IMG/VR virus record: IMGVR_UViG_3300015374_000866
Span: 1-32,868 of that record
Reading direction: 5' to 3' (one strand)
Length of the DNA stretch: 32,868 bases
Source: a virus
Every line of letters starts with the position of its first letter. Position 1 is the stretch's first letter. The notes beneath the pieces were generated by a model. The model did not search any database, was not told the origin of the DNA, and was given only the letters and a program-made list of their open reading frames with translations. Shown one piece after another: positions 1,271-18,542 of this stretch. The position numbers and the translations under genes were made by a program.

Positions 1271-3319
1271 CTACAAGGCCTTCAGCGCGCTGATCTGGTA
1301 GCCGCGCAAGTCACCGATGCGCGTGCCTCTGAGGCGGCGGATGATGCCGTACACGGTCAGGATGCGGAACTGCGTCGCCTGGATATCCACGCCCCACGAT
1401 CGACCGCCGCCGGCTTGCATTGGCAGCAGGCGCTCCTGATAGCCGAACAGGGCGACCTCGTTGACCGTCTCGTCGGGTAGCTCGATCGCCAGCGAGCCCG
1501 GCGCCGCGGCGAAGTTCAGGAGCTGCTTGTGCATCGTGTCCGAGTCGAAGCGCAGCGCGGCGCCGTCCATCCTCGTTTGAAAGCCGCGCGCGTCGATCGT
1601 CATCTGCAGGTCGCGTTTGAAGGCCGGCACCACGCGCTCGTGGTAGGCAATGATTTCGAGCACCGGGGTGTCCAACTGGTTGGTGTTGAACAACTGCGCC
1701 TTGAGCGACAGCGCGTTGCCGACCATGTTCGCGGGCGTGTCGATGCGTTGCCCGTTGTGGATAAATTCGCCCAGGTACAGCCAGTCGCCGGTGGAGTCCG
1801 CTGGCGGCGCCCCGGCACTGGCCATGATGCGGTAGTAGAGCTGCACCTCGTCGCCTGGACGCATCACCGGACCGAAGACACTGAAGCCGAGCCAGTGCTT
1901 CAAATCCGCCTGGAACATCGCGTGGTGCAGCGGAAAAATGATCTCGCTCGGCCCGGTGATGAACTCAGCACCCGAGTCGGCAGCCAGCGGGCTACGCACC
2001 AGCTTGATCCAGTCCCATTTGCCGTCGTCGAAGCCGATGTACAGCCGGTCCTGGCCGCTGGCGCCGCTGACGGCCATCGCGGTGGCCTTGCGTCCTACCC
2101 AGTGCGCGAGCGCGCCGTCGAACTGGTCATCGAAGGCGAAGGTGGTGCCATCCTCGCTCTCGTGCGGCTCCCAGTTGCCGTAGGTCAGCAGGTGACTGGT
2201 GCTGGTTATCGGATTCCAGACCGTCAGGTACGCGCGATAACCGCCCCAGCCGACAAACGCCTGCACATCACCCCGAACGGGTGAGGCGTTATCCAGCATG
2301 CGCCCTGGCCCGGACGGCGTGAGTTGATTGCTCGGCACGTCCAGGCGGTAGAAGGCAGGACCGGCCCTGAACCAGATCGCCCCCAGCCAGGCGGCCGCAC
2401 GGTAGCCATTGTCTGAGTTGATTGGCACGCGCAGGCCGGGAAAAAGATCGTTGGTGCTGCCGTCGCTATTGAGCGTAAACAGGCTGCCGTTTTCTTTGAA
2501 GATGGTCAGCTGGTTGCCGCTCTGCCGCAGCGCCGAAATCTTGACGCTCGGCGAGCCGACGAAGATCGGACCGCTCCAGTTGGCCGCCACCTTGGGATCG
2601 GAGGTGACCTTGCGGACCACCGAGTTTGCCCAATCGGCGGCCCAGAGTTCGACGCCGACCACCTCTACGCGATGCGCCATAAATCCGCTTGGCAACGCAC
2701 ACTGCGTCCACGTCCCGTTCGACGCCCGCTCCCAGAGTTGCCCAGTGACACCAGCGCACACGTACAGCGAAGGCGTCGCGCCTGCGAAGCCGCCCTGGAA
2801 CACCACGCCGTCGAGGGTGCCGATGCCCGCGCCGAAGTCCTTATCAACCACCTGGCCCAGGTCGGTGTCGTCGGTGCGGCGGTACGCCTTCGTGCCGCTC
2901 AGGATGAACTGCTGTATCACGCCACTGGCGTTCGGCGCGTCGAGGAAGCGAGCTACCGATCCGGCTGCCGCCACGGCAGGCACTACTGGGTGAACCAGCG
3001 GTCCCTTGCCGAACAGGCCGCCGTCTACCTGAATGTCCTGGCCCCAGTAGTAGCGCTTGTCGCCGTAGCTGGACTGCACCCGCTCGCCGTAGCCACCCAC
3101 CGGGCGCAGCGGAAACGTCCTCTCTCTATAGACGGGCGCCGAGCCATATTCTTGCACCGACGGCACCACGCTATCGAGCATCTGCTGCTTGCGAGCGACC
3201 ATCAGCCCCTGGTCGTTGGGCACCAGCATGTAGCCAGTACGCTCCTGCGACGAGCCAAGGATGGAGCCTATCCGCGCATGGAAAGGCCACGGTCTGCGCC
3301 TTGACGACAGCAGACTCAT
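1271..3319 (-). CDS. Large tail/structural protein, 682 aa
   Basis: This is a beta-rich protein with many Trp/Tyr/Gly-containing strands across residues 100-450, suggestive of a propeller-like fold in a tail hub or spike-connecting protein. The family is not recognised. The ATG at 3319 is preceded on the minus strand by AGGGG at a 7-base spacing. Its first nine residues (MSLLSSRRR) are repeated in another gene start at 3873, on the far side of the HNH gene. This start therefore appears to have been rebuilt after the HNH insertion. It overlaps the TGA of an antisense frame (ATGA). Position between two fibre genes supports a tail function. Confidence 0.7.
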   Translation of the reverse strand: MSLLSSRRRPWPFHARIGSILGSSQERTGYMLVPNDQGLMVARKQQMLDSVVPSVQEYGSAPVYRERTFPLRPVGGYGERVQSSYGDKRYYWGQDIQVDGGLFGKGPLVHPVVPAVAAAGSVARFLDAPNASGVIQQFILSGTKAYRRTDDTDLGQVVDKDFGAGIGTLDGVVFQGGFAGATPSLYVCAGVTGQLWERASNGTWTQCALPSGFMAHRVEVVGVELWAADWANSVVRKVTSDPKVAANWSGPIFVGSPSVKISALRQSGNQLTIFKENGSLFTLNSDGSTNDLFPGLRVPINSDNGYRAAAWLGAIWFRAGPAFYRLDVPSNQLTPSGPGRMLDNASPVRGDVQAFVGWGGYRAYLTVWNPITSTSHLLTYGNWEPHESEDGTTFAFDDQFDGALAHWVGRKATAMAVSGASGQDRLYIGFDDGKWDWIKLVRSPLAADSGAEFITGPSEIIFPLHHAMFQADLKHWLGFSVFGPVMRPGDEVQLYYRIMASAGAPPADSTGDWLYLGEFIHNGQRIDTPANMVGNALSLKAQLFNTNQLDTPVLEIIAYHERVVPAFKRDLQMTIDARGFQTRMDGAALRFDSDTMHKQLLNFAAAPGSLAIELPDETVNEVALFGYQERLLPMQAGGGRSWGVDIQATQFRILTVYGIIRRLRGTRIGDLRGYQISALKAL
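3293..3319 (-). repeat. Rebuilt gene start, recoded copy of 3847-3873
   Basis: The first nine codons of the 682-aa tail gene (MSLLSSRRR) encode the same peptide as the GTG-initiated start at 3847-3873. The codons differ throughout: Ser is TCG/TCA here and AGT/AGC there, and Arg is AGG/CGC/AGA here and CGC/CGT/CGC there. The two copies flank the HNH gene. Confidence 0.75.
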
Positions 3320-3344
3320 CGCATGCCCCTATAACATGCCATTA

Positions 3345-3845
3345 ATGTCGAGACTCCCCGACCCCCCGCGTCGATGCAAGCAGTGCGGCGAACCTGTGCA
3401 GCGATACCGTTCAAAGAAAGGCCGACTCTTGATGCCAGTCGTGTGCCTTGCATGCCGCGAGCGCTGGCGTCATCCATCTGGGAAAGATCACTGGCACTGG
3501 AAAGGTGGCGAGCGATCATCGAAGGATGGCTACGTACGTGTCTGGGTTGCTCCGGGCCAGCGGACACTAGAACATCGGGCGATCTGGGAAGCTGCGTACG
3601 GCCCCATTCCGCCTGGCATGCACATCCATCACCGAAATGGCGATAAGACCGACAACCGTCTCGATAACCTTGTTCTTGCCAGCAACTCAGAACACCAGCA
3701 CCTTCACGTTGAGCGAAAGCTCGGAGATCGCTGGTCGCTGACGCACAAGCGATGTATTGCTTGCAGAACAACAGAACGCCCGCACCGCGCCCGTGGCTTA
3801 TGCGGGCAGTGCTACGGGCGACTGCACGAAGCCGGTCTGGTGTAA
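3345..3845 (+). CDS. HNH homing endonuclease with zinc motifs
   Basis: The product is about 166 aa from the ATG at 3345. It has an N-terminal CKQCGEPV...CLACRERW zinc ribbon and then the HNH core: EHRAIWEAAYGPIPPGMHIHH, followed by NGDKTDNRLDNLVLASNSEHQHLH. A second Cys cluster (CIACR...CGQCYGRLHEAG) closes the protein. This architecture is typical of free-standing phage HNH homing endonucleases that cut a specific DNA site. The gene lies on the plus strand inside a minus-strand tail operon. No Shine-Dalgarno is visible, but TAACAT lies 7 bases before the ATG, so the message may be leaderless. An in-frame ATG at 3336 is an alternative start. Base composition looks somewhat less GC-rich than its neighbours, consistent with transfer. 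Confidence 0.9.
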   Translation: MSRLPDPPRRCKQCGEPVQRYRSKKGRLLMPVVCLACRERWRHPSGKDHWHWKGGERSSKDGYVRVWVAPGQRTLEHRAIWEAAYGPIPPGMHIHHRNGDKTDNRLDNLVLASNSEHQHLHVERKLGDRWSLTHKRCIACRTTERPHRARGLCGQCYGRLHEAGLV

Positions 3846-3846
3846 G

Positions 3847-3873
3847 GCGACGGCGGCTACTGAGCAGGCTCAC
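3847..3873 (-). repeat. Vestigial original start of the tail gene
   Basis: A GTG at 3873 overlaps the TAG stop of the 94-aa gene (TAGTG), the coupling style used throughout this operon. It opens a frame reading MSLLSSRRR, the same nine residues that start the downstream 682-aa gene, and then runs into sequence antisense to the HNH gene. I read it as the original 5' end of the tail gene, cut off by the HNH insertion. Confidence 0.65.
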
Positions 3874-4157
3874 TAGATGCCGATGATCCTTGAGATGAAC
3901 GTCATGTCCACGGCGTCCAAAGCCACATCCAGATCGGCCAGGGCGCTCTTGAGCGTGGCCTCCTGCTCATCGCTGAAGTAATACGGCGCGGCTTTCAAAT
4001 CGGTCACCCCCAGCCAGGCGTGGTCCTGATTGATGGTCACCTTGTTGGCGGCGAAGCCTCTGAGGTGGGTGCCGAGCAGGCCGTTGACCTCGTCGGCGTT
4101 CCTGGGCTGCGTACCGATCGTTGCGGGCGGAGGCGGGGGTTCTTGAGGAATGGTCAT
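3873..4157 (-). CDS. Small tail-operon protein, 94 aa
   Basis: The product has a Pro-rich N-terminus (PPPPPATIG), then an amphipathic region, and ends in two helices (EQEATLKSALADLDVALDAV and a short hydrophobic end). The family is not recognised. The ATG at 4157 shares one base with the TGA of the collagen-like fibre gene (TGATG), and the stop overlaps the vestigial GTG at 3873. It lies between a long fibre and a large tail protein, so a fibre chaperone or connector is possible. This is inferred from context only. Confidence 0.65.
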   Translation of the reverse strand: MTIPQEPPPPPATIGTQPRNADEVNGLLGTHLRGFAANKVTINQDHAWLGVTDLKAAPYYFSDEQEATLKSALADLDVALDAVDMTFISRIIGI

Positions 4158-6460
4158 CAGTCGTTCAACTCCACCACGTAAAGCGTTGATTCAATGTTGG
4201 GGGTCATGGTCATGGTTCCTGCTCCTGTTTGCATGAAGACCTGAAACGTGTACGTGCCAGCAGCAAGAGTTCCTTTCGGGAGGTAGTAACTAACCGCTAT
4301 AGGGATCGTCTGATTGGCCACTGGGACATAGAGCAGCGTCAGGTTGTGCATGACCGCCCCACCCCACCCGATTCCGGTGTAGATGTAGGTGCCGGCAACG
4401 CTGCTGGTGACCGACAGTGTGTACGTAATGTGCAGCGTCTTATTGCCGAGAATCGTGGTAGCAGCGGAGATCGGGGTGCCCACGCTGGTGGTGACGGAAC
4501 TGCTAAAGGTAGTGCCTGCGGCGTACGAACCAACCAGACGTACCTGCAATGGTGCCGCCAGTGTCGCGGTCAGGACACCAGAGTTGTTCACCGAGAATCT
4601 GGGGGTGAACGTGGAAATCGGATTCGCGCCTGACGGAGCCGTCTGGAATTGAAGCCCACCACCGGCTCCGTCGATGACGAGCATTGCCGCAGCGCTAGCC
4701 ACGTCGAAGCGATTCCAGCTAGTGCCGTCCCAGTAGGCATTGGACGCAATCTGCGGGGCGAGCTTGCTGCTCAGGAATGCATAGCCGTCGCTGCTCTCGA
4801 CGCTCAGGTTGGCTGCCGCGTTGACCGGGTTGCGGATGCGCTCGTTGGCCGAGCCGACATACAGCGTGCGGCTCAGGTACAGATCGCGCGGCCTGGCCGT
4901 CCCGGAGCTACCGATGTCGTAGGTGTTGTCGGTCCCGAAGATGAGATTGGCGGTCGCGGTGACGTTCGGGTTGGCGTCAACTCTGAACCGTTCGGTCCCA
5001 CCAATGGTCACCGCCACCATGCTGGCAGTCGGAAAGTACAGGCCGGTGTTGGACGAGGAAGTGTTGCTGATTGCTGCTGAGGTCGCCAGGCCTAGCTGCG
5101 CTCTGATCCGGCTAGTGGATAGGTTCGTAAGAATGTGGCCGTCTACCCAGAGAGTGCCCGCGAAGTACCCGTCGCGCGGCCTGGTCGCCCCAGCGGCGCC
5201 GATGTCCGAAGCGTTGTCGGTCTGCCAGGTGAGTGAGCCGTTGAGCACTGTGGTGCCGGCGTTGAAAAGGCCGACGTTGGTGGTCGCCGCACCGGACTGC
5301 GCGTTGATGTAGATGCCGTACGCATTCGTGATCCCCGACTTCCCCTGGTTGGCGACATTCAGGCCGTACAGCGTCGAAATTGATGAACCTGCGCCCAGCG
5401 TCGGGACCAGTACCTGAAGGCCGTAGCCGGTGGTCATCGTGAATGTCGAAGCGGCGGTACTGAGCCAAGCAGTCACCACCGCTCCAGCAGTAGTGGACGC
5501 GCTACTGAACGTCGGGGAAGCGTAGATTCCAGCCTGACTGTTTCCGGTGAGGTTGTTGCTTGAGATGTAGAGGGAGATCCCAGTCTGCGAGCTACCGCCG
5601 CCGATAAGTTGCGTCCCAGCAACAGCCAAATTGCGCCCCAGGAACAGATCGCGCGGCCTGGTCGCGCCGCTAGCACCGATGTCGTAGGTGTTGTCGGCGC
5701 CCGCCACCAGATGTCCGGCCGCAACAACCTGCCAGCGCACCGTAGAGGCCGTCATCAAGCTGATGGCCTGCGTCTGACTGTTGAGTTGCAGATCGCTCTG
5801 GGTCGCCTCGACGCGGAAGTTCTGGGCGATCGCCGTGCCCTGGATGACGGAGTTGGTCGTCAGAGTCAGACTGCCGGCCACACTGGCGTTGCGTGACAGG
5901 AACAGGTCACGCGGGCGGTTCGTGGTGGCGGTGTTGCCGATGTCGTACGTGCCATCGGGGCTGAACGTCAGGTTCTGACTGAGTGGCAGCGTCAACCCGC
6001 CGCCACCACTCTGGACCACCCACTGGGTGTTGTAGTTAGTGGCGTCGATCTTGGCTAAGACCTGGCCGGCCGAGCCGCCAGCCGGCACGCCCTGACCGGG
6101 CGGCCCCTGGCTGCCGGTGTTGCCCTGCGGTCCCTGGATGCCCTGTGGCCCGGCTGGTCCCTGCGGCCCAGGCACGGTGGAAGCTGGCCCAGTTGGTCCG
6201 GCTGGACCCTGAATGCCCTGCGGCCCGGCTGGACCTGGCACCGTTGAATCTGCGCCTGTTGCTCCCGTTGGCCCCGCCGGTCCTGTTGGACCTGTTGCTC
6301 CCTGGATGCCTTGCGGACCCTGCGGACCAGTTGAGCCTGCCGGCCCGGCTGGCCCTGGCACCGTCGAGGCGGCACCCTGTGGCCCAGGTGGACCCTGGAT
6401 GCCCTGCGATCCAGCCACCCCAGCCGGCCCACGGATATTGCTGACCTGCGTCCAGGGCAT
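4157..6460 (-). CDS. Collagen-like tail fibre, 767 aa
   Basis: Residues 11-124 are mainly Gly-X-Y triplets ([15 protein letters not shown] and similar), as in phage collagen-like fibres that trimerise into a rigid stalk. Residues 150-540 carry four spaced copies of a DNTYDIG-x-RPRDLFL-type repeat with beta-rich spacers. The last 200 residues are Thr/Ser-rich beta structure, probably the distal tip. The protein should be a trimeric extracellular tail fibre that contacts the host. The ATG at 6460 lies ten bases past the stop of a second short collagen-like gene. High confidence for fibre; the receptor is unknown. Confidence 0.88.
4850..5956 (-). repeat. Four RPRD-type fibre repeats
   Basis: Four copies of a roughly 27-residue unit lie within the collagen-like fibre, at about residues 169-196, 256-282, 415-441 and 511-537. 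The key residues are D-x-x-Y/S-DIG, then RPRD, then an aromatic (F or Y) and a V-x-G end. The DNA is also similar between copies, around 5873-5956, 5615-5695, 5138-5218 and 4850-4930. Confidence 0.8.
6089..6430 (-). repeat. Collagen-like Gly-X-Y tract
   Basis: About 114 codons near the 5' end of the fibre gene consist largely of Gly-X-Y triplets, with embedded recurring units GIQGP and STVPGPAGP. Tracts of this kind are prone to length change by recombination between copies. Confidence 0.88.
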
Positions 6461-9625: not shown

Positions 9626-9763
9626 GAGTTGCAGCGCGGCTGATTTGACTTCGATCGACTGGACGATTTCCCGCTGGACTTCCTCTGGGATCAGCGGACC
9701 CGAACCAGGGGTCGCGCGGGTGGCGATGCTGTTATAGGGCGTAGGTGTACCCTCGCTTCTTGT
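9626..9763 (-). other. Conserved capsid N-terminal segment lacking a start codon
   Basis: The capsid frame stays open upstream of its first ATG to a TAG at 9824-9826. The segment reads SEGTPTPYNSIATRATPG, then SGPLIPEEVQREIVQ, then SIEVKSAALQL. The LIPEEV...IVQ...SAALQL pattern is typical of the N-arm of HK97-type capsid proteins. No ATG, GTG or TTG exists in this frame between 9626 and the stop. The HNH gene starts at 9786 on the other strand, just where the capsid start should lie. Either the 5' end was lost on insertion, or a non-standard start is used, or the sequence has an error. Confidence 0.75.
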
Positions 9764-9785
9764 TTCAGGCTTACAATGCCTTACT

Positions 9786-10265
9786 GTGGAACAATGGGCG
9801 CCGATCGCTGGCTGGGAAACCCTCTACGCCGTCTCCGACGCGGGCAACGTCTACAGCTTCCGTCGCAAGAAGAATCTGACTGGCTTCAGCGCAGGGGCGG
9901 GATACCTGCAAGTGACCCTCGCCGATCTGCCCAAGCGGAAGATGCGCGCGTATGTCCATCTGCTCGTCGCGGAGGCATTTCTGCCACCCAGACCCGGCCC
10001 GCGCTTCGAGGTTAACCATCTGAATCTCGACAAGCTCGACAACCGAGCCACGAACCTCAGATGGGTGGCGCATGCCCGCAACCAGCGACACGCGGCGGTC
10101 TACGGCCGTATGCAGAAGCATGGGCAACGCAAGCTCGACGCTGCGCAGGTTGACTGGGTACGTGCGAACCGCAATGGATCGGCGCACAAGATGGCCGCTC
10201 AACTCGGCGTCACGTCAATCGTGATCTACCAGATTTGGAACGACCTGACCTATCGAGATGTCTAG
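9786..10265 (+). CDS. HNH homing endonuclease, NUMOD4 type
   Basis: The 159-aa product begins with a NUMOD4-like segment (EQWAPIAGWETLYAVSDAGN). The HNH core follows (VNHLNLDKLDNRATNLRWVA), and a C-terminal helix-turn-helix-like region (HKMAAQLGVTSIVIYQIWN) probably provides DNA recognition. These proteins are site-specific homing endonucleases of phages. The start is a GTG with no Shine-Dalgarno. TACAAT, close to the -10 consensus, lies 8 bases upstream, so leaderless expression is plausible. It is transcribed against the late operon and separates the scaffold-like gene from the capsid gene. Confidence 0.9.
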   Translation: MEQWAPIAGWETLYAVSDAGNVYSFRRKKNLTGFSAGAGYLQVTLADLPKRKMRAYVHLLVAEAFLPPRPGPRFEVNHLNLDKLDNRATNLRWVAHARNQRHAAVYGRMQKHGQRKLDAAQVDWVRANRNGSAHKMAAQLGVTSIVIYQIWNDLTYRDV

Positions 10266-10274
10266 ACAATGGGA

Positions 10275-12956: not shown

Positions 12957-15900
12957 CTACGGCGCCTGCTGGGTGACGGTTTTGCGAATGGCTGCGTTGC
13001 GCTTGTCCATGGCCTCTTTCGCCAGGCGGTACTTCTCCGACACCTGGTCCTCGTACGTCAGCGCCAGCTTCACATCCGCGCTGGATGGCTTGGCGTTGTT
13101 CTTCGGGTCAGTGTCCCACGCGCGGTACTTTGCCAGTGCCTGGTCGATGTCCTGCTCTTTCTGCTTGTCCGTGACGCCCACGTATTTCGGCGGCAGGCCC
13201 ACGTCGGTCGTCGACTGGGGAATGCCGAGCAGGTCGGAAAAGTGTGACCTGAGCTGCTGCTGCGCGACCCTCAGCATGCTGTCCTGACGATCGCGCGTGG
13301 CCGTCGCGTACTCCGGCAGTTGGCGTATCGAGTCGGCGATCGGCTCCTGCGAATTGCCCATGCTCTGGTCGAGCTTGTCGTACTTGTCGGCAGCGAGCTG
13401 GCCGCCGTAGTTGCGCAGCACGCCCGAAGCCAGACCGCCGATGACGGGTGGTCCCTGAGACGGTTGCTTGTCCGACGGCGAGGTGCCGAGCCACTCCGAG
13501 AGCTGGTCGCCAGCCGCCAGCCCGGTACGGCCGAGCGTGCCCAGGTTCTCATTAATAAGGAAGTCGAGCTGCATGGGCGAGATGCCCAGCTCCTCGCCGA
13601 TCTTGCGGCTGAGCACGCTGGTGCGCTCGTTGGACTGCTGCGACGGCGGCAGGTCTTCTTTGTCGCGCGGCACGATCGGTAGGCCGGTGTAGAAGCGGCG
13701 ATTGGCCAGGATCTCGACTGGCGAGCGTAACGGCGCCGGCAGCAAGGTGGCCGCGGCCGAACCAGGATCGTTGCCCTGCAGCGGCAGCACGTTGCCGGCC
13801 TCGTCGGTGCCCAGGTTGCGCAAGGTACGTGGGTCGCGCGCGGCCGGGTTCGGGTCGAGCTGGCTGAGGCCGTAGTTGAGCGGGTCAGTGAAACTCGCCC
13901 ACTCGCGGAGTGGGATCGACAGCCGCGGGATGTTCTTGTAGCCGATGCCGTTGTCGTTCTTTTCCCCGTCGCCGAGCATGACGATCATGTTCGCCTTGCG
14001 CTCGTACTCGGGGATGTCCCAGTACTCGGGTCGCTGACGGTTGCGGTAGTCGTTGATGGCGTTAATGCCGGCCAGTCCAGCCAACCGCTTGCCAGTGCCG
14101 ATGGGGTTGTCGCGCAACGTACGCGCCATGTTCAGGCTGCCCTGGGCGCGCGCGTTCAGGAACAGCGACACCATGTTCGCCTCGCGCAGTACATCGCCCG
14201 CTCGCGAGAAGTCCACGGTGGCGCGCCGTCCGGCTGTAGCCGCCTGCGCCGGCGACTCGCCCCTGGCCAGGTGGCGCTCGAACGCGGCCAGGTGCGGTCC
14301 CTGCTCGATCACCTCGCCCGCTCGAGTGATGAACTTCAGCTTGAGCGCATCGCCGATCAGCCGCGTCAGGTCGCCGTGGTCCTTGACGACCAGGCCACCG
14401 GTGTCTTCGATGAGCTTGTCGATATCCTGCGGCGAGCGCTGGAAGAGCGACTCCATGCCGCCGCCGGCGCGCATATACCCCTTGTACAGGTCGTCCTGCT
14501 TGGCGGCTGACCACCAGCCTTTCGGGATACGTGCCGCGGTGCCGGCGCCCTCGCGCAGATACGTCGTCACCGCGTCGGCAATCGCATTCGTCACCAGAAA
14601 CGGCGGGCTGGCAGCTGTCGCGCCCCAGCGCAGCGGCGCGTTCAGCGCCTTGAAGACGTTGCCGATGACGCCCGGTGGTGCGCCGTCGAGGCCGAGCATC
14701 ACCTTGCGGAGCTCTTCGGGGGCCTTGTAGTACACCCGCTGGCCGTTTTCGTACAGGCTGACCAGGTCTTTCTGGTCGCCGAACTTGCGCTCGAGCACGC
14801 TGGCGACACCGGTGGGTCCACCCAGCAGTTTGCTCAGCGGCGCGCCGCCGGGGCCGCTGACTTCTGGTCCGGTGACGACGCGCATCGGATTGACGCGCTG
14901 CACGATGGACTTGCCCGTCTTGGGATCGAGCAGTTGCGGATCGTTCTGGGCGGCCTCGATGATCGACTTCGCCACGTCGTTGCGGTTGTTCAGCACGTCG
15001 TTCTGCACGAAGTGGCGCACCAGCGAGCGGATGGGCTGCTCGGTGTCGTCGACGGAGCCCTCTTCGCCCAGTCGGCGCAGCAGGTTATTGACGTTCACCA
15101 GGCGATCGCCGCCGCTGCTGATGCCGCCGTCGCCGGCGTCGAGGTGCTTCATGAACACCGTCGGGTTGTAGTGGGGCTGCTCGGCGATCAGTCGCGTGGC
15201 CAGGTCGGGGTCGACCATGCCGGCCTTGACGCGATCCAGCAGTAAGCCCTCGGTAGCCTTGTTGAGCATCTGGTCGGCCCGTTCGATGGCTCCGAAGCGA
15301 TCGGTTCCGACGAGCGCCTCGAGATCCTGCAGTCGCGCCTGCGCGTCGGCCGCGCTGGTCACGCCGCCCGAAGCCTGGCGCGTACCGCCGTACAGGTTGG
15401 CCACCTCCACGTCGCGCTGCAGCTTGCGGTACGTATTCAGGTGCTCGAGGTCAGCTTCGCCGCCCGGACCCTTGCGCACGATGTCCAGGGCAGGGGTGAC
15501 GTCATCCTTAATACGCTGCAGCGCGCGCGCTCCCTTGCCGGCGTAGGCCGCCACCAGCGCTTCGGCGTCCATCTCGGGTGTGAACGACGAGCCGAGCGCC
15601 TCCTTAGCTCGCCCGGTCATCTGGTTGATGTAGGCGAAGCGATCCGCCGCGGCCCTGTCGAGGACGCCGGTGCGCCCACCCAGACCGAAGAAGTCGGCCG
15701 CCTTATCGGCGACCTCGCTGACCGGCGACGGACGCGCGTCGATGGTGCGGTACATGTTGGTGATCTTGTCGAGCTCGGGGTACGCCGTTTTCGCCAGCTC
15801 GGCGCCGCGCGGCGTGACGGCCCAGCGCGCGCCGCGGAAGCCAGCCTCGCCAGCGGCTGCGCCGGCAGCAGTGCGCAGCAGCCGCTCCTGGGGCGAGGCG

Positions 15901-18542
15901 CCCTCGGGCGTGCTCTGCCAGCCAGCAGCGCCGCCCGCGACGTCCAACCCCAGCCGAGCCGCCAGCTCGGTGCCGGCACTGCCTGCTTGCGCCGCGCCGG
16001 CGACCGGCCGGGCGATAGCGCCCGCGCCGCGTATCGCAGTCCCGAGCGGATCGAGCGCCTGCGCACCCGCGCGCACCAATCCTGGCGCCGCCTCGGCAGT
16101 CTCGAGCCCGGCAACGGGCAGAGCTGCCAGGTTGCCCACAAGCTCGGCAGATTCTCGATCGGGTGATGCCAGGCCGCGGCGATACACAGACTCGAGGTCA
16201 GTGCCGCCGCCGCCCACGAAGACCTCGGCCTTGCGCTGATCGGCAGCCGCCTGCGTATCGCGCATCTCCTGACGGATCGCGTCCTGCTCGGCGCCGCTGC
16301 CCGCGGCGTAGAGCTGGCCCTGCAGGTCCTGCAGCCGCTGCAACTGGGCGTTGTACTCGGGGTCGCGGCGGATGTCGCCCGAGAGGCCCTCGTACAGGCG
16401 CGAAGCGTGGGTAAACGGCGACAGCTCGTTGACCACGTCCAGTGCAGTCTTGACGCCGGTGCCGACGATCGACGCGCCGGTGCCGAGCGCGTCCAGCGGC
16501 GTACCGGTGTCCGGCGACTGAATGCCCTGCAGGCGCTCCTGGGCGCTCTGACCGAAGGCAGTACCGACCTCCTGCGGGATACCGGTGGTGCCGGCCGCGA
16601 CGATGCCCGGCGCGCTCACGTCCGGCACCTGGCTGAGCGCGCTGGCGGCCTGATCCTTCGCGCCGCCGACCGAGTCGATGAAGTCGGAAAACGCGCTCTT
16701 GAGCCGATCCACCGGGCTCTGCGGCTGGGCTTCTTCGGCCGCAGCCGGCGCGGACGGGATATGCGCCTGGATCGTGTCGGGTACAGACTGCACCGCGTTG
16801 CCCAGAATGTCGCCGGCGCCACTGGCCAGGTCGGCCAGCCCCTGCACGCCGGGCAGCATCTGAGCCGTGCTTCTGGCCGGTACCTGCGGGTTGTCGGCGA
16901 ACAGCGCACCCTGGATGCGGCCCATGCGCGCTTCCATCTGTGCTGGCGTCATCCACTCGGAGCCGCCACGCAGATCGAGGCCTGACTGGCCGACGTGAAA
17001 CGCGCCCGTGTTCTGGTCGTAGTTATCGGCGAAGAAATAGTGGCCGGGCGTGCTGATGGTCACCGGGTTGCCGGTCGAGGCCTCGCGTGCCATAGCCTGC
17101 ACGTCGGCGCCCACCAGTTTTGTCGGGATGCCCAGCTTCTCCATGAGCTGCTGCTCGGAGCCGATGCCGGCCATGCCCTGAGCCGACGTCCAGCCGACGG
17201 AACTGGCCAGGTCGGTCGCCTCGCGCAAGGTGGGATTCCTGCCGAACGCCTGTGCAAAGCGCACTGCGGCGGCCGGGCCGCAGGCGGCATACGCCTCGTC
17301 AGCCGACAGTTGTGAGTCGCCGAACTGGGATACCTGTTTCGCGGGCGGGGCCCAGCCACCGGTGCGACTGAGCAGTTCTTGAGTCGACGCGCCCGCGGCG
17401 CTACCAGCTCCGCCAATCTCGCCGTACGCGGAAGCGTAATTACGCCGCGCGGCCGACTGCGGGTTGTCGTACTGGTAGGGACGCTCTGCCTGGGCCGCGA
17501 CCCAGGAAGCTTTCTCGGCGCCGCTCAACCCCTCGGGCGCGCTCTGGTACGCCCTGGCATACAGCGGCACGATCTGGGACGCCTGCAGTTGCGCGCCGCT
17601 TTCGCCGAGCAGTTGCTGCTCGTTGTCGGCGTACGGCTTACCCATGCCGCCCAGGTCGAACTGGAACAGGCCGCGCCCGCCACCACCTTTCTGCACCGCG
17701 TTCGGGTCCCAGCCGCTCTCGGCCTTGGCGCCGGCGGCCACGGTACGGATGAAGTCCGGATCGCTCGCGAGCTCGGGCGGGGCGTTGCTGCTGATCAGAT
17801 CGGATAGCCAACCGGGCACGCCGCCTACATTCGGCGTACCCGTTGGCCTGACACCGCTGGGGGAGGGTCCAGCAGCAGGTTCTGGTGGCGGAGTCGGATT
17901 GAACTGGTTGGCAAAGCTCTGCAGGTCCTGTACGCCAGCCTGGCTGGCAGCGGTCAGCCCCTGTGAAAACGCCTCGTTGGCGTCACCCGCGCTGCTCTTC
18001 AAGCTGTTCCACAGGTTGTCGGCGAAGCCCTGCACATCGCCGCCGGCAGCGGCGGCTGCAGCCACGCCCTGGCTCCAGACGTCGTCGCGCCAGGAGTCCA
18101 GGTTCGAAGACTGCGCTGGACTGGGGGCGGTCGCCTGGAAGCTCGAGGGCTCCGGTGTCGGAGCAGGAACAGGACTAACAGTTGGCGGCGCTGCCTCGGG
18201 CATCGGCTCCGGAGCTGCTGGTGGTGGTGGAGGTGCGGCTGGTGGAGTCGGCGCGGCCCAACCACCGATACGGCTCAGGTCCGGCGCTGCCGGCGGCTCC
18301 GGCGGCGGAGGCGGAGGCGGTGGCGGAAGTGGCTCCGGTTCTGGCGGCGGAGGTGGAGGAGCAGGCGGCGGAGGTGTTGCCTCAGGAGGAGCGCCACCCA
18401 GCAGTCCCTGGATGCCGCTGAGCTTCTCGCCGAGAGCCTGCTGCAGGCTGAAGCCGTCGATCTTCTGCTGGATGTTCTGCGACAGCTGCTGCCGCTGGTA
18501 CTCATCCCAGCTTTGCTCGTCGATATCCGGCAGCATCGTCAT
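12957..18542 (-). CDS. Giant multidomain virion protein, lysozyme and C39-like, 1861 aa
   Basis: This is the largest gene here. Residues 51-135 are a poly-Pro linker. Residues 244-378 form a lysozyme-like domain with candidate catalytic Glu275 (AKAESGWDP) and GRGLFQFD. Residues 395-545 resemble a papain-type C39 peptidase, with Cys421 in AACGPAAAVRFA and His501 in TPGHYFFADNYD. The middle is long and helical. Around residues 1290-1600, motifs such as NAPLRWGATAASPPFLVTNA and VDFSRAG...LFLNARAQGS recall the LPD38 domain of phage polyvalent proteins. The start has GGAGG at an 8-base spacing. It is probably carried in the virion and ejected, opening the peptidoglycan. The LPD38 call is from memory. 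Confidence 0.82.
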   Translation of the reverse strand: MTMLPDIDEQSWDEYQRQQLSQNIQQKIDGFSLQQALGEKLSGIQGLLGGAPPEATPPPPAPPPPPPEPEPLPPPPPPPPPEPPAAPDLSRIGGWAAPTPPAAPPPPPAAPEPMPEAAPPTVSPVPAPTPEPSSFQATAPSPAQSSNLDSWRDDVWSQGVAAAAAAGGDVQGFADNLWNSLKSSAGDANEAFSQGLTAASQAGVQDLQSFANQFNPTPPPEPAAGPSPSGVRPTGTPNVGGVPGWLSDLISSNAPPELASDPDFIRTVAAGAKAESGWDPNAVQKGGGGRGLFQFDLGGMGKPYADNEQQLLGESGAQLQASQIVPLYARAYQSAPEGLSGAEKASWVAAQAERPYQYDNPQSAARRNYASAYGEIGGAGSAAGASTQELLSRTGGWAPPAKQVSQFGDSQLSADEAYAACGPAAAVRFAQAFGRNPTLREATDLASSVGWTSAQGMAGIGSEQQLMEKLGIPTKLVGADVQAMAREASTGNPVTISTPGHYFFADNYDQNTGAFHVGQSGLDLRGGSEWMTPAQMEARMGRIQGALFADNPQVPARSTAQMLPGVQGLADLASGAGDILGNAVQSVPDTIQAHIPSAPAAAEEAQPQSPVDRLKSAFSDFIDSVGGAKDQAASALSQVPDVSAPGIVAAGTTGIPQEVGTAFGQSAQERLQGIQSPDTGTPLDALGTGASIVGTGVKTALDVVNELSPFTHASRLYEGLSGDIRRDPEYNAQLQRLQDLQGQLYAAGSGAEQDAIRQEMRDTQAAADQRKAEVFVGGGGTDLESVYRRGLASPDRESAELVGNLAALPVAGLETAEAAPGLVRAGAQALDPLGTAIRGAGAIARPVAGAAQAGSAGTELAARLGLDVAGGAAGWQSTPEGASPQERLLRTAAGAAAGEAGFRGARWAVTPRGAELAKTAYPELDKITNMYRTIDARPSPVSEVADKAADFFGLGGRTGVLDRAAADRFAYINQMTGRAKEALGSSFTPEMDAEALVAAYAGKGARALQRIKDDVTPALDIVRKGPGGEADLEHLNTYRKLQRDVEVANLYGGTRQASGGVTSAADAQARLQDLEALVGTDRFGAIERADQMLNKATEGLLLDRVKAGMVDPDLATRLIAEQPHYNPTVFMKHLDAGDGGISSGGDRLVNVNNLLRRLGEEGSVDDTEQPIRSLVRHFVQNDVLNNRNDVAKSIIEAAQNDPQLLDPKTGKSIVQRVNPMRVVTGPEVSGPGGAPLSKLLGGPTGVASVLERKFGDQKDLVSLYENGQRVYYKAPEELRKVMLGLDGAPPGVIGNVFKALNAPLRWGATAASPPFLVTNAIADAVTTYLREGAGTAARIPKGWWSAAKQDDLYKGYMRAGGGMESLFQRSPQDIDKLIEDTGGLVVKDHGDLTRLIGDALKLKFITRAGEVIEQGPHLAAFERHLARGESPAQAATAGRRATVDFSRAGDVLREANMVSLFLNARAQGSLNMARTLRDNPIGTGKRLAGLAGINAINDYRNRQRPEYWDIPEYERKANMIVMLGDGEKNDNGIGYKNIPRLSIPLREWASFTDPLNYGLSQLDPNPAARDPRTLRNLGTDEAGNVLPLQGNDPGSAAATLLPAPLRSPVEILANRRFYTGLPIVPRDKEDLPPSQQSNERTSVLSRKIGEELGISPMQLDFLINENLGTLGRTGLAAGDQLSEWLGTSPSDKQPSQGPPVIGGLASGVLRNYGGQLAADKYDKLDQSMGNSQEPIADSIRQLPEYATATRDRQDSMLRVAQQQLRSHFSDLLGIPQSTTDVGLPPKYVGVTDKQKEQDIDQALAKYRAWDTDPKNNAKPSSADVKLALTYEDQVSEKYRLAKEAMDKRNAAIRKTVTQQAP

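What the first reader, a model, noticed from the sequence alone, without database searches (positions are those of the whole stretch)
3293..3873. HNH insertion with a duplicated, recoded gene start
The HNH gene (3345-3845) is flanked by two copies of the same nine-residue start, MSLLSSRRR. The copy at 3873 keeps the operon's TAGTG coupling and looks original. The copy at 3319 is used by the intact tail gene and has a new AGGGG ribosome site. The codons are changed at nearly every position while the peptide is kept. This suggests a homing cassette that replaces the 5' end of its target with a recoded version, restoring the gene while removing the cleavage site. I do not know this exact arrangement from the literature.
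Basis: partly seen in the sequence, partly recalled or inferred. Interest (0 to 1): 0.8.

Follow-up and report, generated by a model that had tools for sequence, protein, structure and literature searches.

The report
Phage homing cassette with built-in repair
A selfish HNH nuclease gene has cut into the start of an essential phage tail gene and carries a re-spelled copy of the lost start, so the protein is restored while the DNA differs; the same design recurs in unrelated soil phages and resembles a natural 'home-and-rescue' gene drive.

Summary
An HNH nuclease gene (3345-3845, +) lies between two starts encoding MSLLSSRRR: a 28-nt remnant (3846-3873, -) and the recoded start of the intact tail-nozzle gene (1271-3319, -). 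A 93%-identical relative (L002) is uninterrupted, and its codons match the remnant, not the active start. The same HNH family does the same in two further phage lineages, each with an uninterrupted twin (L040/L055; L164/L171). Left of the insertion point the active copy differs from the twin at 5-13 nt of 24-27, the remnant at 1-3; to the right those two further lineages are identical to the twin for eight codons. Three more loci keep only two codons of remnant. HNH and tail-gene relationships disagree strongly (tails 94% identical with HNHs 49%; HNHs 75% with tails 55%), so the HNH moves horizontally. Best reading: an HNH homing element that restores its target with a re-spelled 5' end. That the re-spelling blocks cleavage is inferred. 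New detail: from the remnant a frame stays open through the antisense of the HNH gene and stops on the active start, possibly keeping translational coupling. Closest precedent: fungal mitochondrial mobile ORFs that replace gene 3' ends. New variant of a known kind.

The parts
3345..3845 (+). HNH endonuclease gene (166 aa), antisense to the structural operon; zinc-ribbon-like CxxC pairs on both sides of an HNH_3 domain
   Evidence: Pfam HNH_3 E 7.7e-19 and DZR_2 just below cut-off; best fold match I-HmuI 1u3e, weak sequence match to the same entry
3846..3873 (-). remnant of the original tail-gene start, codons 1-9 plus one base, cut off at the insertion point
   Evidence: matches uninterrupted L002 at 24 of 27 nt; TAGTG coupling retained
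3272..3319 (-). recoded codons 1-16 of the active tail gene
   Evidence: 10 of 14 synonymous-capable codons differ from L002 versus 163 of 589 in the rest of the gene
3326..3330 (-). AGGGG ribosome-binding site supplied with the cassette
   Evidence: sequence
1271..3319 (-). target gene: podovirus-type tail nozzle/hub protein, 682 aa
   Evidence: predicted model's best matches are P22 gp10 and Sf6 gp8 complexes, E about 1e-10; model confidence is moderate (pLDDT 66.6)
3316..3873 (-). open frame from the remnant GTG through the antisense of the HNH gene, ending in TGA that overlaps the active ATG (ATGA); possible coupling frame
   Evidence: 185 codons open; equivalent frames in L040 and L164
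3873..4157 (-). upstream 94-aa operon gene whose stop overlaps the remnant start
   Evidence: conserved upstream of the uninterrupted gene in L002

Best explanation
This is a mobile HNH homing cassette inserted in the 5' end of an essential tail-nozzle gene, just before the conserved Pro-Trp-Pro codons. The unit consists of the antisense HNH gene, a new ribosome site and a synonymously recoded copy of the gene's 5' end (codons 1-8 or 1-9, in the window to 16). Shown: insertion into a formerly continuous gene, displacement of the native start as a remnant, restoration of the reading frame by a recoded start, recurrence in several lineages, and horizontal movement of the HNH. Inferred: the HNH cuts the uninterrupted gene near the insertion point, repair copies the whole unit in, the gene still works because its start comes along, and the recoded left half-site protects the restored gene from being cut again. 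Also inferred: ribosomes starting at the remnant may read the antisense frame and re-initiate at the new start, preserving operon coupling.
For: Uninterrupted twin L002 (93% identical) matches the remnant, not the active start. Second lineage: L040 (HNH 55-58% identical) with remnant MSLYAKRE|P and recoded active start; uninterrupted twin L055. Third lineage: L164/L163, found in two metagenomes, with twin L171. Pooled over the three, native versus remnant differ at 6 of 75 nt and native versus active at 27 of 75 (p 5e-5); the active copy differs from native at 27 of 75 nt left of the insertion versus 4 of 72 just to the right (p 4e-6). L073, L083/L084 and L196 carry relatives of the HNH at the same gene start with a two-codon remnant. 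Incongruence: L040-L073 tails 94% but HNHs 49% (L055 tail used as proxy for the truncated L040 tail); L073-L164 HNHs 75% but tails 55%; window-L040 HNHs 55% but tails 29%. HNH under purifying selection, dN/dS about 0.25.
Against: No cleavage or homing data. Per-lineage synonymous enrichment is modest (p 0.008, 0.07, 0.08; combined 0.003). Silent codons at this gene start also vary among uninterrupted relatives, so some of the difference could be ordinary divergence. Only three lineages keep a full remnant.
Confidence: 0.74

Rival explanations
1. One-sided recombination with a diverged phage: an ordinary intergenic HNH plus the donor's own 5' gene end was joined to the broken recipient end. The recoding is only the donor's natural divergence and the remnant is a scar.
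For: In the window the diverged tract runs past the insertion point to codon 16, as a co-conversion tract would; uninterrupted relatives show varied codons at this start.
Against: In L040 and L164 the changed tract stops exactly at the insertion point and the next 8 codons are identical to the native twin; the same layout recurs in separate lineages.
Confidence: 0.2
2. Homing cassette as proposed, but the recoding was selected to stop recombination between the two direct repeats (which would excise the HNH), not to block cleavage.
For: Remnant and active start would otherwise be 24-27 bp direct repeats; recoding breaks them up.
Against: Repeats of this size are expected to recombine rarely (general knowledge); recoding in the window also covers codons 10-16, which are not repeated.
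Confidence: 0.25
3. Recoding tunes translation initiation after loss of the native TAGTG coupling.
For: Active starts have lower third-position GC than native or remnant starts in the three full cases.
Against: Predicted folding around the start is not consistently weaker: window active -22.6 versus native -15.8 kcal/mol; a coupling frame appears to be kept.
Confidence: 0.12
4. Separate genes, chance peptide match or assembly artefact.
For: The window is a single metagenomic record.
Against: Uninterrupted twins show a single gene; L163/L164 and L083/L084 each come from two metagenomes with the same arrangement; screen of 83 loci.
Confidence: 0.02

Closest known systems
Fungal mitochondrial mobile ORFs forming gene hybrids (Allomyces macrogynus atp6; Glomus atp6, atp9, cox2, nad3; PMC3630166)
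   Same: Endonuclease ORF inserted in a gene; the native end is displaced and left as a duplicate, and a diverged copy of the gene end carried with the endonuclease restores the gene; the displaced copy matches close relatives better than the active copy.
   Different: There it is the 3' end, in organelles, with LAGLIDADG or GIY-YIG enzymes, and the carried end is read as horizontally acquired sequence. Here it is the 5' end of a phage structural gene, with an antisense HNH enzyme, a new ribosome site, a peptide kept almost exactly, and recoding that in two lineages ends at the insertion point.
Free-standing phage homing endonucleases (T4 mob and seg genes; PMC2988022)
   Same: HNH gene outside introns, at or near a conserved gene, horizontally mobile.
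   Different: T4 types sit in intergenic regions or split a gene; the passages read in that review describe no carried, recoded gene end.
ShiLan out-of-frame HNH insertion in phage methylase (PMC11855218)
   Same: Related HNH with flanking zinc-finger domains inserted in a phage gene, neither intron nor intein; the best phage matches of P0002 include this element.
   Different: ShiLan leaves the host frame open through the insertion; here the gene is restarted from a recoded copy.
I-HmuI (PDB 1u3e), HNH homing endonuclease
   Same: Best fold match of the HNH core.
   Different: I-HmuI is intron-borne (established knowledge); no group I intron was found here.
Synthetic cleave-and-rescue / home-and-rescue gene drives (for example PMC7951863)
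   Same: Nuclease linked to a recoded rescue of its target; an analogy of design only.
   Different: Synthetic, RNA-guided, eukaryotic.

Membership tests
HNH homing endonuclease element | HNH nuclease domain intact | tested here: met
   HNH_3 E 7.7e-19; conserved His/Asn positions in six homologues
HNH homing endonuclease element | present in some alleles, absent from a continuous allele at the same site | tested here: met
   L002, L055, L171 uninterrupted
HNH homing endonuclease element | moves independently of the host gene | tested here: met
   HNH and tail identities incongruent
HNH homing endonuclease element | cleaves the empty allele site-specifically | not testable with these tools
   needs purified protein
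Mobile ORF gene hybrid (fungal mitochondrial type) | duplicated gene end flanking the endonuclease, native copy displaced | tested here: met
   remnant versus active copies
Mobile ORF gene hybrid (fungal mitochondrial type) | replaced end is the carboxy-terminal (3') end | tested here: not met
   it is the 5' end here
Mobile ORF gene hybrid (fungal mitochondrial type) | hybrid gene expressed, displaced end not | not testable with these tools
   no RNA data
Group I/II intron | intron RNA structure | tested here: not met
   no intron family in 3000-4300; the only hit was one far below its gathering score
Intein | in-frame, same strand, splicing domains | tested here: not met
   HNH is antisense and the host gene is restarted downstream

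The most novel reading that the evidence does not exclude
A class of phage homing elements works as natural home-and-rescue drives: nuclease plus a synonymously recoded 5' end that restores an essential target and makes it uncleavable, with a decoy frame from the old start that keeps translational coupling; the strategy has arisen for more than one target gene (tail nozzle, and a DNA methyltransferase in L123/L129).
Probability: 0.45. Interest if true: 0.82.

Novelty: new variant of a known kind. Interest (0 to 1): 0.66.

Why it matters
Homing nucleases usually avoid killing their host gene by hiding in introns or inteins, or by sitting between genes. This is another solution in phages: break an essential gene but bring a re-spelled replacement. 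If confirmed, it is a natural counterpart of engineered recoded-rescue drives, gives a ready test of how silent changes confer immunity to a homing nuclease, and explains odd gene starts that annotation would pass over.

Tried and rejected
Tested whether the tail-gene start is a silent hot spot in uninterrupted relatives (an arms race at the target): not significant after correcting for amino acid (observed/expected 1.1-1.4, rank 90-153 of about 650 windows), although multi-base Ser/Leu/Arg codon switches are 2-3 times more frequent there; left open. Tested translation-structure relief: no consistent effect. Searched for an intron: none. Relatives of the tail gene in named phages: none. HNH relatives in bacterial genomes: only distant ones. 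A loose protein-similarity screen of flanks was too noisy to use and was replaced by stricter ones. The second HNH of the window was tested as another case: it shows no peptide duplication.

Full report
What is there. The window is a 32,868-base virus record. Its structural genes run on the minus strand. Between a 94-aa gene (3873-4157) and a 682-aa gene (1271-3319) lies an HNH gene on the opposite strand, 3345-3845. On the minus strand the HNH stop codon adjoins GTGAGCCTGCTCAGTAGCCGCCGTCGCC (3873-3846), and beyond the HNH start lies ATGAGTCTGCTGTCGTCAAGGCGCAGA (3319-3293). Both encode MSLLSSRRR, with 8 of 9 codons changed.

The gene was once continuous. The tail gene has 38 related loci in viral contigs. 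The closest, L002 (93% identical), is uninterrupted: its upstream gene ends ATCTAGTGAGCCTGCTCAGCAGTCGCCGCCGCCCCTGG, the same TAGTG coupling and almost the same codons as the remnant. Against L002 the remnant differs at 3 of 27 nt and the active start at 13 of 27. The changes continue to codon 16 and then fall: 10 of 14 synonymous-capable codons in 1-16 versus 163 of 589 in the rest.

The arrangement recurs. A homologue of the HNH in another phage, L040, sits between remnant MSLYAKRE|P and active start MSLYAKREPWPFH. Its neighbours include L055, uninterrupted, which differs from the remnant at 1 of 24 nt and from the active start at 5 of 24, while the next 8 codons are identical. A third lineage, L164/L163, in two metagenomes, has remnant MSLYAKREP and active MSLYARREPWPF; twin L171 differs from them at 2 and 9 of 24 nt, and the next 8 codons are identical. 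Pooled, native versus remnant is 6 of 75 nt and native versus active 27 of 75 (p 5e-5); active differences left of the insertion versus the next 8 codons are 27 of 75 versus 4 of 72 (p 4e-6). In all three the insertion point lies within the Pro codon of the conserved Pro-Trp-Pro motif. L073, L083/L084 and L196 have the same HNH family at the same gene start with only two codons of remnant; in them the HNH reading frame runs into the upstream gene, which looks like deletion of a once longer remnant or a second junction type.

The HNH is mobile and kept functional. L040 and L073 have tails 94% identical (L055 standing in for the truncated L040 tail) but HNHs 49% identical; L073 and L164 have HNHs 75% but tails 55% identical; the window and L040 have HNHs 55% but tails 29% identical. 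dN/dS between HNH pairs is about 0.25. The protein has an HNH_3 domain, and its best fold match is the homing endonuclease I-HmuI (E 0.009, probability 1.00). No intron was found and the HNH is antisense, so this is neither intron nor intein.

The target. A predicted model of the 682-aa protein matches P22 gp10 and Sf6 gp8, the tail hub/nozzle. Such a part is expected to be essential (established knowledge of podovirus tails), so the insertion must be compensated.

A new detail. From the remnant start, the frame stays open for 185 codons through the antisense of the HNH gene and ends in TGA overlapping the active ATG (ATGA). In L040 it is 184 codons ending GTGA, in L164 266 codons ending TAATG. 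With HNH codons randomised under phage codon usage the frame stays open in 21%, 4% and 5% of trials, combined p 0.017. Part of the stop overlap is automatic, since ATG-AGT contains TGA. I read this as suggestive of preserved translational coupling, not as proof.

Generality. In a screen of 83 HNH loci the same kind of duplication was found once more with another target: in L123 an HNH follows 36 codons of a DNA methyltransferase start (MTAYYNEIDPYCAQW...RSIE), and the intact gene behind it begins with a diverged version (MRAFYNEIDAYCCDW...KSIE); L129 has the same layout. The remnant resembles the start of the uninterrupted gene of Burkholderia phage BcepC6B better than the active copy does, 28 versus 19 of 35 residues. 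There the HNH is on the same strand and the new start is diverged in protein sequence too.

Mechanism. Most likely, the HNH cuts uninterrupted alleles near the Pro codon; repair from a donor uses the upstream gene plus remnant on one side and the rest of the tail gene on the other, and so copies in the HNH gene with the recoded start. The restored gene keeps its protein but not its left half-site. The cutting, the homing and the immunity are inferred. The main alternatives are that the recoding is divergence of a donor allele, or that it was selected to prevent loss by repeat recombination. Uninterrupted relatives do vary in silent codons here, so recoding alone is weaker evidence than the remnant/twin comparison and the sharp boundary.

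Known and new. The closest precedent is the fungal mitochondrial mobile ORF that displaces a gene's 3' end and supplies a diverged one (PMC3630166; it names Allomyces atp6 as the first reported case). A review of T4 elements (PMC2988022) describes intergenic and gene-splitting cases, and ShiLan (PMC11855218) is a related HNH that leaves the host frame open. Seven literature searches found no phage case of a carried, recoded 5' end; the library is open-access only, so this is not proof of absence.

Noticed in passing
window 9740-10267: A second HNH gene (9786-10265, +) sits exactly at the start of the major capsid gene: relative L046 is continuous there. In L046 and L048 the capsid gene appears to start with ATT; in the window the cassette side supplies a ribosome site and what looks like an ACG start, with no ATG, GTG or TTG in frame nearby.
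   Followed up: partly
L123 2171-3711 and L129: HNH inserted after codon 36 of a phage DNA methyltransferase gene, with the native 5' end left as a remnant and the intact gene starting with a diverged copy: the same strategy with another target gene and a same-strand HNH.
   Followed up: partly
L073 4010-4774, L164 2495-3241: These HNH proteins carry three zinc-ribbon-like repeats at the C terminus where the window's protein has one, and L083/L196 have none: modular change of the presumed DNA-binding part.
   Followed up: no
tail gene starts of L050-L079: Uninterrupted relatives that are nearly identical downstream can differ strongly in silent codons 2-8 (for example L057 and L059, 10 of 24 nt versus 3% downstream); they may be resistant or cured alleles. 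Not significant as a general hot spot after correction.
   Followed up: partly
window 12957-18542: Single 1861-aa ORF with a very proline-rich N-terminal part, possibly a large internal or injected virion protein.
   Followed up: no
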